27,983 bases of DNA from Schoenoplectus triqueter (taxonomy: Eukaryota > Streptophyta > Magnoliopsida > Poales > Cyperaceae). The translations under genes were made by a program, and so were the position numbers. The stretch's first letter is position 1; each line of letters starts with the position of its first letter. Shown here one piece after another: positions 12,481-21,674 of this stretch. The stretch is taken from assembly GCA_964058805.1 (NCBI GenBank), contig CAXKVV010000223.1, positions 1 to 27,983 of the forward strand. The letters run 5' to 3'. The notes under the pieces were generated by a model. That model worked only from the letters and a program-made list of their open reading frames with translations. It was not told the origin of the DNA and searched no databases.

Positions 12481-12945
12481 TAGGGAATCAAAATCATGTT
12501 CGCGTGTCAAGGCACGGCACGACACGAAACGGTACGAGAGCGACACGGCACGGCACGCGTGCCTATCCGTGCCGGCATGACACGTGTCACGTGTCGTGTT
12601 CTTAAACGTGACGTGACTGATTTTTTTCATTTTCGACACGGCACGACACGCACGGTTAAGAGGTCCCAACACGGTACGTCACGACACGAGCACGACACAC
12701 GACTAGACACGACACGTATAAGCACGACATGAATAGGCACGAACACGCACGGTACGGCACGGATAGGCACGGACACGCACGGCACGACACGGGTAGATAC
12801 GGATAGGCACGGGTAGGCACGACATGTCAAGGCACGGTAGGCACAGGTAGGCATGACAAGGCACGGATAGGAACTGATAGATACGGGTAGGCACGAATAG
12901 GCACGGCACGGTAAAACACAGTAGGCACGAGTAGGCACGGGATGA
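12481..12945. repeat. Degenerate CACGAC/GGCACGG array
   Basis: About 450 bp of irregular repeats of CACGACACGG, GGCACGGCACG and GGGTAGGCACG, GC-rich in an AT-rich setting. On the minus strand it encodes apparent CRAY/VPIRA peptide repeats, which are translation artefacts. The period drifts (6, 7, 10, 12 bp), unlike a clean satellite. It abuts the end of the duplicated segment copy 1. Confidence 0.75.
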
Positions 12946-15715: not shown

Positions 15716-16489
15716 TATTTTGAGAGATTTTGTTCATTTTTTTCTGAGGAAGTTTAAAATGCAACGCGTCAAAATTTAAAATTTTAAAATTAAAAATGTC
15801 AAATATGAACCGTTCAATTTATTCTACATATCAAACTCATTTAGAAAATTAAATTTTATATTTTTTTAAAGAAAATTGGTAGAAAGAAAATCATCGCTAT
15901 TAGACGATCCAAAATCCTCAAATCAACCAACTTTCCATCAGTAAAAAAAATAGCAAAAAAAGTTTCAAAAAATATAAATTTTAATTTTTCTCTAAGAATT
16001 TGATATAAAAATAAATTGAAATGTTCGGATCAATAATTTGATATGAGACCTTAAGTTTTTTACCTTACGTTTTTTACGACAAGTACACACATGAATGAAT
16101 TACTTTTTAAAATAAATTGAGAAAATTGCTTTAGTTGTGGTGAAGTGAATTTGTCACAGTAACTTCAGTTCACTTTACTTTTTACGGCAAAGTAAAATAA
16201 TAAAAAAAAATGCGAATTTAATTTACTTCATTTCTATTTGCTTCTTTAAAAGGAAAATTATAGCGGTATAAGTAATATCTCACTCCGTCTTATGCTTGTT
16301 AAACGAAAAGCATACAATTGAATAAACGCGAATGCATAATGTTATAAATAATTATTTCCTAGCCCATTATCACCTATTCGTACTTATTCGTACAGCCGTA
16401 TCAATGATTCTTTCTTTTAAGTATTTCAGGAAGATTTAATGCAAAAGTTCAAGCATTAAACTGATAACCGTATTATATATAGAGAATAA
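15716..16489. other. AT-rich intergenic, nothing recognised
   Basis: No gene, RNA or clear repeat was found in this stretch. Confidence 0.5.
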
Positions 16490-16889
16490 ATTTATGGTAC
16501 TCTTAAGCTAGCTGAGATCTTCTATAAATTTAATTCAAAAAATATATTAAATTATTTTTAAATTTTGATTTACTAATGCTCATCAAAAAAAATTATGAAA
16601 ATCTTATAGGATAGAAAAATTTGAGGTGTTTTGAGGCTTTTAATTCATCGTTTTTAATTTTTGAAAAAAAATATATAAATATTAAGTATTTTATTATTTT
16701 TTTAGAGCTGATTTTTAAAAATTAAAAAACAAAGACTTAAAAAACTTGAAACACCTCAAATTTTTGCATCCCATAAGATTTTCATATGAAGAATTTAATG
16801 AGTATGATAAATCAATATTTGAAGATGATTTGATATATATTTTTTGAGTTAATCTCACGAAAGGTCTCCATGAAGAGCACGTCGGATTA
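16490..16889. mobile_element. Palindromic MITE, family B, diverged copy (B1)
   Basis: Arms share AAAATATATTAAATTAT, AAATTTTTGCATCCCA and GAATTTAATGAGTATGATAAAT with B2 (17366-17778) but with many substitutions. The centre GTATTTTATTATTTTTTTAGAGCTGATTTT is in the same orientation as in B2. The terminal 16-bp palindrome seen in B2 is largely lost. It ends directly in a (TC)n(TA)n tract at about 16890-16930. Confidence 0.65.
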
Positions 16890-16890
16890 T

Positions 16891-16930
<40 letters not shown>
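16890..16930. repeat. (TC)n(TA)n compound microsatellite between two MITEs
   Basis: About 13 TC units followed by about 8 TA units, between B1 and element A. The same arrangement follows the right ends of B2 and B3, so it seems to belong to the element end or its target. Confidence 0.9.
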
Positions 16931-16932
<2 letters not shown>

Positions 16933-17331
16933 GAGTGAGGCTATGGTGCTTCGCGAAGCACAAAACCTCCCGTGCTTCGCGTCCGTATCTCGAATTTGAA
17001 AGTTCATACGCTCGATCCAAACCGTTGAACATGATCTTCATATTGAAATATCTTTGGAGATCAAATTTTATATTTTTTTGAATTTTTTTGCTATTTTTAA
17101 ATGAGTATAAAATTTGCTGATCTAACGATTTCTGCACCATCCAAAACTAGTGATTTTGTACCCATCTAAAAAATAGCAAAACAATTCAAAAAAATATAAA
17201 TTTTGATCTCCAAAGATAGTTCAATATGAAGATCATGTTCAACGGTTTGGATCGGGCGTATGAATTTTCAAATTCGAGATACGGACGCGAAGCACGGGAG
17301 GTTTTGTGCTTCGCGAAGCACCATAGCCTCA

Positions 17332-17336
<5 letters not shown>
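16931..17336. mobile_element. Palindromic MITE, family A
   Basis: Full-length fold-back of about 406 bp. It starts TAGAGTGAGGCTATGG and ends with its exact complement CCATAGCCTCACTCTA. Just inside each end sits a perfect 16-bp palindrome GTGCTTCGCGAAGCAC (16946-16961 and 17306-17321). Arms carry GACGCGAAGCACGGGAGG and its complement, then AT-rich arms around a unique centre with ATCTAACGATTTCTGC. It is embedded in TA repeats on both sides. The minus-strand frame spanning it is a chance frame. Confidence 0.8.

Positions 17337-17365
<29 letters not shown>
17337..17365. repeat. (TA)n microsatellite between MITEs A and B2
   Basis: About 14 TA units join the right end of A to the left end of B2, with no other sequence between them. 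Confidence 0.9.
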
Positions 17366-17369
<4 letters not shown>

Positions 17370-17778
17370 GAGATAGCGTGAGCTTAAGCTCACGGAGGCC
17401 TTTCGTGAGCTTAACTCAAAAAATATATTAAATTATCTTAAAATTTTAATTTATCATTCTCATTAAATTCTTTATATCAAAATATCATGGGATACAAAAA
17501 TTTGGAGCGTTTTGAGCTTTTTAAGTCACCGTTTTTAATTTTTGAAAATGATGTTCAAGTATTGAATATATTATTATTATTATTATTAGAGCTGATTTTC
17601 AAAAATTAAAAACGGTGACTTAAAAAGCTCAAAACGCTTCAAATTTTTGCATCCCATGAGATTTTGATATAAAGAATTTAATGAGAATGATAAATTAAAA
17701 TTTTAAGATAATTTAATATATTTTTTGAGTTAAGCTCACGGAAGGCCTCCGTGAGCTTAAGCTCACGCTATCTCCACT
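17366..17778. mobile_element. Palindromic MITE, family B, complete copy (B2)
   Basis: Starts AGTGGAGATAGCGTGAGC and ends with its complement. A perfect 16-bp palindrome GTGAGCTTAAGCTCAC sits inside each end (17378-17393, 17751-17766). GTGAGCTTAA recurs at 17405, 27 bp after the first. Arms of roughly 170 bp carry GCATCCCATGAGATT and TTTAATGAGAATGATAAAT, around a short asymmetric centre with (ATT)n. The right end continues into (CT)n(TA)n. Confidence 0.8.
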
Positions 17779-17807
17779 CTCTCTCTCTCTATATATATAT
17801 ATATAAT

Positions 17808-18432
17808 TAGGCTACGATGCTTTGCAAAGTACAAGAGCGTTGTGTGCTTTGCGCTCTATTTTCCATTTCAAGTCAGAAATGATCGATCCAAATCACTCAA
17901 TCTAATCTCTATATCAAAATCTATTAGTAAACCAAATTATATATTTTTTTGAAATTTATTTGCTATTTTTTTGGATAGGGGGGAAACCGTCATTTTTGGA
18001 TGAACCAGAATTCTCAGATCGAGTCATTTTCTCCTCATCAGAAAAAATAGCAAAAAAAATAAAAATATAAAATTTGGTTTCCTAATAGATTTTGATATGA
18101 AGATTAAATTGAACGGTCTGAACCTTTCAATCTAATCTTCATATCAAAATCTATTAAAAAATCAAATTTTATATTTTTTTAGAATTTTTTGCTATTTTTT
18201 CTGATGAGGAGAAAATTACTTGACCTGAGAATTCTGGTTCATCCAAAAATGATGGTTTTCTCCCTATCGAAAAAATAGGAAATGAATTCTAAAAAATATA
18301 AAATTTAGTTTACTAATAGATTTTAATATGGAGATTAGATTGAGCAGTTTGGATCAATCATTTCTGACTTAAAATTAATAATAGAGCGTAAAGCACACAA
18401 TGCTCTTATACTTTGCAAAACACCATAGCCTA
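17808..18432. mobile_element. Palindromic MITE, family C (head-to-head dimer related to A)
   Basis: Ends TAGGCTACGATGCTTTGCAA and the complement of TAGGCTATGGTGTTTTGCAA, plainly related to A (GCTATGGTGCTTCGCGAAGC). Inside are two units, 17898-18111 and 18128-18342. Each is itself a palindrome starting CAATCTAATC, with the centre of the second (GAGAATTCTGGTTCATCC) the reverse complement of the first (GGATGAACCAGAATTCTC). A has one such unit, C has two. TA tracts flank both ends. Confidence 0.7.
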
Positions 18433-18471
18433 TTTATATATATATATATTTATATTTATATTTAAAAAAAT

Positions 18472-20080: not shown

Positions 20081-20342
20081 TTTCTTTTAATTTTGTAGGC
20101 AGTAAGAACTGTCAAGTTTTACAGTTCGAATTTGTAAACGTAACCCCACAAACCGAAGCACCATTTTCTACGATTCTTTATATATTTCGTAGTTAAAAAA
20201 AATAAAGCGCATCCAGTGGTTAAGTTTTATAAATTTAAACAAAAACAAGAGAACTAATCCATCTGATACGCATTACTTTTATCATTGCGTCCCTCTTATT
20301 TAATTTTCCCCAAAGATTAAAGTTATATATATATATATATAG
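20081..20342. other. Intergenic spacer ending in a (TA)n tract
   Basis: No gene was recognised. A (TA)n run at about 20325-20341 is the flank of the next element. Confidence 0.5.
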
Positions 20343-20725
20343 AGTAGAGATACCGTGAGCTTAACTCAAAAAACATATCAAATCATTTTAAAATTTTAAT
20401 TTATCATTCTCATTAAATTCTTTATATGAAAATTCCATGGGATGCAAAAATTTGGAGCGTTTTGAGTTTTTTAAGTTGTGATTTTTAATTTTTGAAAATC
20501 AACTCTAAAAATAATAATAATATATTCAATACTTGAACATCATTTTAAAAAATTAAAAACGGTGACTTAAAAAACTCAAAACACTCCAATTTTTTGCATC
20601 CCACAAGATTTTTATATAAAGAATTTAATGAGAATGATAAATTAATATTTTGAGATGATTTAATATGTTTTTTGAGTTAAGCTCACGGAAGGCCTCCGTG
20701 AGCTTAAGCTCACGGTATCTCCACT
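20343..20725. mobile_element. Palindromic MITE, family B, copy 3 (B3), opposite orientation
   Basis: Arms match B2 closely (TTTAATGAGAATGATAAATT, AAAAACGGTGACTTAAAAA). The asymmetric centre (AACTCTAAAAATAATAATAATATATTCAATACTTGAACATC) is the reverse complement of that of B2, so the element lies in the other orientation or has flipped. The right end keeps the 16-bp palindrome (20698-20713). The left end lacks it through an apparent 27-bp deletion between GTGAGCTTAA repeats. It is followed by (CT)n(TA)n at 20725-20748. Confidence 0.8.
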
Positions 20726-20750
20726 CTCTCTCTCTCTATATATATATAAA

Positions 20751-21352: not shown

Positions 21353-21674
21353 TAGAGGTGGCAGAATCCGACCCAACCCGACAAACCCTCCCAATCCGTC
21401 CGGATCCGAACCCGATCCGACCCGATTTTTTAAGAAAGTCAAACTGATCTGACCCGACTCGAACCCGATCTGACCCGACCCGACCCGAACCCGACCTGAC
21501 CCGACCCGACCCCAGATTAAATGGCCTTCAATCCAATCGAAATCTATCAACGATCTGAAAAAACACAACATGTAAATTGACCTGACCCGACCCGACCTGA
21601 TTTCTTCCAGAAAGTCAAACTGACCCGACCCGCCCGACCCGAACCCGACCCGACCCGTCCGATTGCCACCTCTA
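21353..21674. mobile_element. hAT-type MITE with CCCGA-pentamer interior and 8-bp target-site duplication
   Basis: Ends TAGAGGTGGCA and TGCCACCTCTA are perfect 11-bp inverted repeats. The flanks GACTTATA at 21345-21352 and 21675-21682 are identical. The interior is mostly degenerate CCCGACCCGA and AACCCGATC words, with AAGAAAGTCAAACTGA-type blocks repeated directly (21432-21447 and 21610-21622). The minus-strand frame across it (VGSGRVRVGSG) is an artefact of the pentamers. Confidence 0.85.

What the first reader, a model, noticed from the sequence alone, without database searches (positions are those of the whole stretch)
16490..18432. Train of four palindromic MITEs strung on TA microsatellites
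Order: B1-(TC)n(TA)n-A-(TA)n-B2-(CT)n(TA)n-C-(TA)n, with no other sequence between. Three sequence families share one design: TA-rich flank, TAG/AGTG tip, a 16-bp sub-terminal perfect palindrome (GTGCTTCGCGAAGCAC in A, GTGAGCTTAAGCTCAC in B) and arms pairing to the centre. Each tract may be the target for the next insertion, so the elements could build their own landing sites. Rice Micron is a described TA-microsatellite-targeting element; serial insertion of several families would go further.
Basis: partly seen in the sequence, partly recalled or inferred. Interest (0 to 1): 0.75.

Follow-up and report, generated by a model that had tools for sequence, protein, structure and literature searches.

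The report
Train of TA-repeat-targeting hairpin MITEs
Four small hairpin-shaped jumping-DNA remnants sit end to end because their kind inserts into TA repeats, a habit already described in guayule, rice, pineapple and barrel medic, so this is a clear new example of a known kind.

Summary
Window 16482-18449 is B1-(TC)n(TA)n-A-(TA)n-B2-(CT)n(TA)n-C-TA, with only dinucleotide repeats between elements. A, B2 and C each fold into one long hairpin (z -41.6, -35.9, -34.0). Corrections: A and C are related, and C and B1 lack the perfect 16-bp palindrome. The habit is genome-wide: (TA)5 lies beside 140 of 176 exact A tips (reverse strand) and 127 of 136 B tips (forward strand). Of 24 two-tipped A copies read, 23 have TA on both sides; 10 of 26 A copies read abut another element by a fixed motif (12 by eye). 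Trains elsewhere have other orders; the only second copy of this train found is in contig C1991, probably an overlap. Serial insertion into TA microsatellites is the best explanation, and it is published: SaTar arrays (guayule, rice), Ac-mMITE clusters (pineapple), MuTAnT (Medicago). A Mutator-like transposase is likely, but none with these tips was found. Less usual: A tips are phase-locked to the TA repeat (239 against 7); one contig holds a tandem array of identical A units; two A copies sit at the centre of inverted duplications of their flanks. The last two could be assembly artefacts.

The parts
16474..16481 (.). short (TA)4 tract left of B1
   Evidence: sequence
16482..16890 (.). B1, decayed copy of MITE family B (79.5% to B2)
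16891..16932 (.). (TC)n(TA)n tract between B1 and A
16933..17334 (.). A, 402-bp hairpin MITE, tips GAGTGAGG...CCTCACTC, 16-bp subterminal palindrome
17335..17366 (.). (TA)16 tract between A and B2
17367..17777 (.). B2, hairpin MITE of family B, tips GTGGAGATAGC...GCTATCTCCAC
17777..17805 (.). (CT)n(TA)n tract between B2 and C
17806..18432 (.). C, 627-bp hairpin MITE related to A (63-74% over long stretches)
18435..18449 (.). TA tract right of C
20324..20748 (.). solitary fifth copy of family B (element 20342-20724) with TA on the left and (CT)n(TA)n on the right; same kind, outside the train

Best explanation
The train consists of non-autonomous, hairpin-forming MITEs, most likely Mutator-like, that insert into (TA)n microsatellites. 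Each insertion leaves TA repeat on both sides, hence two landing sites, so several families accumulate end to end without nesting. B1 and C are the older members, A and B2 the younger. The TC stretches are most simply slippage expansions of the elements' own CTC/GAG tips. Shown here: hairpin structure, TA association, association with neighbours, different orders at different loci, difference in decay. Inferred: that TA pre-existed, the order of insertion, a Mutator-like transposase acting in trans, and slippage.
For: TA beside 140 of 176 exact A tips on the reverse strand and 127 of 136 B tips on the forward strand. 23 of 24 two-tipped A copies read have TA on both sides. Background: 9 TA tracts of 10 bp or more in 116 kb of 33 MULE loci, one of them counted twice, and no A, C or B tip in the 30 of these scanned. 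Neighbour tip just beyond the tract in 10 of 26 A copies against 11 of 3850 control windows. Trains in other orders on C1135, C584, C164 and C56. Young A (0.75% from the majority of 25 copies) beside old B1 (79.5% to B2). L015: A in a TAA tract with a 9-bp repeat at its edges, as Mutator-like elements leave. The same behaviour is published (PMC5907723, PMC8449440, PMC4486113).
Against: No empty site was seen, so TA before insertion is not shown. No MULE with these tips was found. The T-first phase on both sides of A (239 against 7 tips) does not fit a 9-bp duplication, whereas L015 has 9 bp. In C489 and C39 neighbouring elements arose, as assembled, by duplication and not by insertion. 36 of 176 exact A tips lack (TA)5 within 14 nt; longer GA stretches may account for part of these.
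Confidence: 0.85

Rival explanations
1. The TA tracts are a product of insertion: elements insert at short TA runs or AT-rich sites and the tracts grow afterwards by gap repair or slippage.
For: PMC5907723 cites maize elements whose empty sites had 6-8 bp of TA and which gained long TA after insertion. GA/TC stretches at the tips look like slippage of the element ends. L015 sits in TAA, not TA.
Against: Neighbours abut across one shared tract rather than lying merely nearby, which needs TA to be a target at least for later insertions. MuTAnT empty sites already had about nine TA repeats (PMC4486113).
Confidence: 0.3
2. Elements travel with TA filler and enter other TA tracts by homologous recombination, for example from circles, as PMC5907723 proposes.
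For: A tips keep one TA phase almost always (239 against 7), as inherited flanks would. The C489 array has one spacing repeated exactly.
Against: An even target duplication, such as 10 bp, explains the phase as well. Both phases occur beside B tips (listing). L015 has an exact 9-bp repeat without TA.
Confidence: 0.12
3. The train is one ancient segmental unit copied as a whole.
For: C1991 carries an identical train.
Against: The 4,943 bp of C1991 compared are identical to the window, flanks included, which fits an overlapping contig. Other loci have other orders. One search scored 40 of 2992 candidates, so a further copy is not wholly excluded.
Confidence: 0.03

Closest known systems
SaTar elements (guayule and rice; also sorghum and citrus), PMC5907723
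   Same: Non-autonomous terminal-inverted-repeat elements of about 400-1700 bp in (TA)n and other microsatellites; mixed-family, non-nested arrays; about 30% linked; some copies with target duplications outside microsatellites.
   Different: Different species and, as far as could be judged, different sequences (their sequences were not seen). No autonomous partner found here, whereas guayule has one. Tandem and inverted duplications of elements seen here are not in the sections read.
Ac-mMITEs of pineapple, PMC8449440
   Same: TA-flanked MITEs with GA...TC ends, 46.1% of full-length copies in clusters, GA/TC stretches read as slippage, 9/10-bp duplications in copies without TA, no autonomous partner found.
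   Different: Ac-mMITE families are 510-570 and 210-270 bp; A, B2 and C are 402, about 411 and 627 bp. The authors excluded tandem duplication for their clusters; C489 here looks like one.
MuTAnT of Medicago truncatula, PMC4486113
   Same: Foldback MITEs in TA microsatellites.
   Different: An autonomous mudrA-like element is known there; 9-bp duplications; arrays are not described in the sections read.
Micron (rice) and TAFT (maize)
   Same: Insertion in (TA)n.
   Different: Known here only through PMC4486113 and PMC5907723 and from recall; the original papers were not read.

Membership tests
SaTar / microsatellite-targeted MITE (mt-MITE) | Most copies flanked by dinucleotide microsatellites | tested here: met
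   140 of 176 A tips, 127 of 136 B tips, 23 of 24 two-tipped A copies
SaTar / microsatellite-targeted MITE (mt-MITE) | Non-nested, mixed-family arrays joined by microsatellite | tested here: met
   Window and C1135, C584, C164, C56 maps; no mapped element is split by another in the loci mapped
SaTar / microsatellite-targeted MITE (mt-MITE) | Terminal inverted repeats, small size, no coding capacity | tested here: met
   Arms of 163-216 nt, 402-627 bp; no ORF over 159 aa in the window, and the one overlapping the train (141 aa) crosses from B1 into A
SaTar / microsatellite-targeted MITE (mt-MITE) | Sequence identity to the published families | not testable with these tools
   Consensus sequences are in supplementary files, which could not be read; published lengths differ
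Mutator-like elements (MULE) | 8-11 bp target site duplication | tested here: inconclusive
   One copy, L015, with 9 bp in a TAA tract; TA phase of A implies an even length; B shows both phases (listing)
Mutator-like elements (MULE) | Autonomous element with matching tips and MULE transposase | tested here: inconclusive
   149 MULE-domain matches; 30 loci scanned for tips, none found; in five contigs with both, the MULE match lies outside the mapped elements. The one MULE whose ends were read has other tips and a 9-bp duplication (C1063)

The most novel reading that the evidence does not exclude
Besides serial insertion, the near-perfect hairpin of a fresh A element can act as a pivot for inverted duplication of its own flanks (C39, C133), and its TA ends for tandem amplification into a young satellite (C489). 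Palindromic MITEs would then multiply neighbouring elements and TA landing sites without transposition.
Probability: 0.25. Interest if true: 0.55.

Novelty: new member of a known kind. Interest (0 to 1): 0.3.

Why it matters
It adds another genome to a short list in which TA-seeking MITEs build modular arrays, with linkage close to the published 30% (guayule) and 46% (pineapple). The TA phase of the tips, strict beside A and mixed beside B, is a simple read-out of duplication parity that could be used where target duplications inside microsatellites cannot be read directly. If the inverted and tandem cases are real, hairpin MITEs also grow arrays by duplication.

Tried and rejected
Segmental duplication of the train: largely rejected. 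One search lists the full train only in the window and at C1991:5697-7639; the 4,943 bp compared are identical, so C1991 is most likely an overlapping contig. One search scored 40 of 2992 candidates.

Autonomous partner: 149 MULE-domain matches, 150 of 187 candidates scored. Thirty loci scanned for tips; five contigs holding both a MULE match and A or B copies were read. No MULE between A, B or C copies was seen there; the mapping needs long matches and could miss a short diverged tip.

Three independent families: rejected, A and C are related. RNA genes in the window: none reported. ORFs of at least 120 aa: three, the longest 159 aa.

Second allele for the C39 inverted duplication: one search found only the two copies in C39 itself, which does not decide between real and artefact.

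The A copies come from exact-tip matches early in the contig-ordered lists, which favours young copies; sites on C158, C166 and C181 with one listed tip were not read, nor anything later than C198.

Genome-wide count of A-A neighbours: not completed.

Full report
What is there. The window is contig C218 of an 82.1 Mb, 2086-contig assembly. Between 16482 and 18449 four MITE-like elements stand end to end with only TA or TC repeats between them. A (402 bp), B2 (about 411 bp) and C (627 bp) are near-complete hairpins with fold z-scores of -41.6, -35.9 and -34.0; B1 is a decayed B copy with z -9.8. A and C share 63-74% over stretches of about 105-127 nt, so they are one lineage. A further TA-flanked B copy lies at 20342-20724.

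Genome-wide habit. A tips with up to 3 mismatches, which may include C tips, number 749 forward and 743 reverse, B tips 294 and 291. That is about 746 and 292 copies if each has two tips. Exact A tips number 193 and 176. On the reverse strand, where the listing shows each tip once, 140 of 176 have (TA)5 within 14 nt; the forward count of that call (777) repeats tips and is not used. For B, 127 of 136 forward tips have (TA)5 within 30 nt; the reverse count (841) repeats tips and is not used. Of 26 A copies read, 24 had both tips and 23 of these had TA on both sides. The exception, L015, sits in a TAA tract with the 9-bp repeat ATAATAATA at its edges. As background, 33 MULE loci (116 kb) hold 9 TA tracts of 10 bp or more, one counted twice because L039 lies inside L072, and the 30 loci scanned for tips hold none. 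These loci are not a random sample.

Neighbours. Ten of 26 A copies have an element-like tip just beyond the tract by a fixed motif, which occurs in 11 of 3850 control windows. By eye I would add L032 and L086, giving 12 of 26. Contig C1135 carries about a dozen A, B and C pieces in another order, and C584, C164 and C56 carry other trains. These maps show truncations and A-C fusions (L014, L073) but no element split by another.

Ages. Twenty-five full A copies differ from one another by 1.8% on average, and the window's A by 0.75% from the majority; the sample favours young copies because tips had to be exact. B1 is 79.5% like B2, and matches to C elsewhere in the loci mapped lie mostly near 81-89%. 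The members of the train therefore seem to have arrived at different times, as serial insertion predicts.

TA phase. Beside A tips the repeat starts with T in 239 cases (112 + 127) and with A in 7 (2 + 5; one of the 7 lies in the C489 array). Of 24 two-tipped A copies, 19 are T-first on both sides, 4 on one side with the other unclassed, and 1 unclassed. An even duplication such as 10 bp fits; 9 bp does not, unless elements move together with their TA flanks. B tips in the listing show both phases: the C4 copy at 152 kb has one of each, the C112 copy A-first on both sides, the C106 copy T-first on both.

Other routes. In C489 A tips recur at spacings of 408 six times and then 398; the six 408-bp units are identical and the joins read ATATA. 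Seven A copies of this array have the same interior. In C39 (L021) an A copy lies at the centre of an inverted duplication of about 535 bp per side with one mismatch next to A, with equal TA and GA tracts and a neighbouring MITE on each side; a search found only those two copies of the adjoining host sequence. In C133 (L034) about 70 bp per side, tract included, are inverted copies. Among 56 distinct full-length interiors held, the only others with shared inverted 25-mers were L079, which lies between two A-like pieces, and the C489 copies, whose neighbours are themselves palindromic. These cases may be real, for instance hairpin-templated synthesis, or may be assembly errors at hairpins.

Transposase. 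PF10551 has 149 matches. The MULE in C1063 has tips GGGAGCAGAG and a 9-bp duplication TTTTTTATT, unlike A, B or C. The partner of A and B remains unknown, as in pineapple (PMC8449440).

Literature. Read: PMC5907723 abstract, Results part 1 of 2 and Discussion part 1 of 2; PMC8449440 abstract, Results part 1 of 2 and Discussion; PMC4486113 abstract, Results and Discussion. They describe the same behaviour, including non-nested mixed arrays (SaTar) and clustering of 46.1% of full-length Ac-mMITEs. Paper searches were otherwise seen as listings only; I make no claim that the inverted or tandem cases are absent from print. The finding is a new member of a known kind.

Noticed in passing
L071 (C489:14327-17550): Tandem array of A elements: spacing 408 six times then 398, units identical, joined by ATATA; looks like a young satellite made from a MITE, or an assembly artefact.
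   Followed up: partly
L021 (C39:409006-410487) and L034 (C133, A copy at about 31286-31688): A copies at the centre of inverted duplications of their flanks, about 535 bp and 70 bp per side.
   Followed up: partly
L014 (C22:725205) and L073 (C56, from 133797): Chimeric elements with one A half and a C-like half.
   Followed up: no
L023, L025, L021, L081, L082 beyond the A flanks: Further MITE families with tips of the same design (CTA-GGTGCT...AGCAC), not catalogued here.
   Followed up: no
G000 contigs C42, C294, C732, C802, C957 and others: MULE-domain matches of identical score (56.4 bits) with frames of about 738-766 aa open on many contigs; C732 and C1039 share 3.2 kb at 99.3%. Looks like a recently active MULE family whose tips were not determined.
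   Followed up: partly
   Followed up: yes
window 12697-12940 and 21444-21512: Degenerate minisatellite-like arrays (GCACG... and GACCC units) listed by the tandem repeat finder.
   Followed up: no
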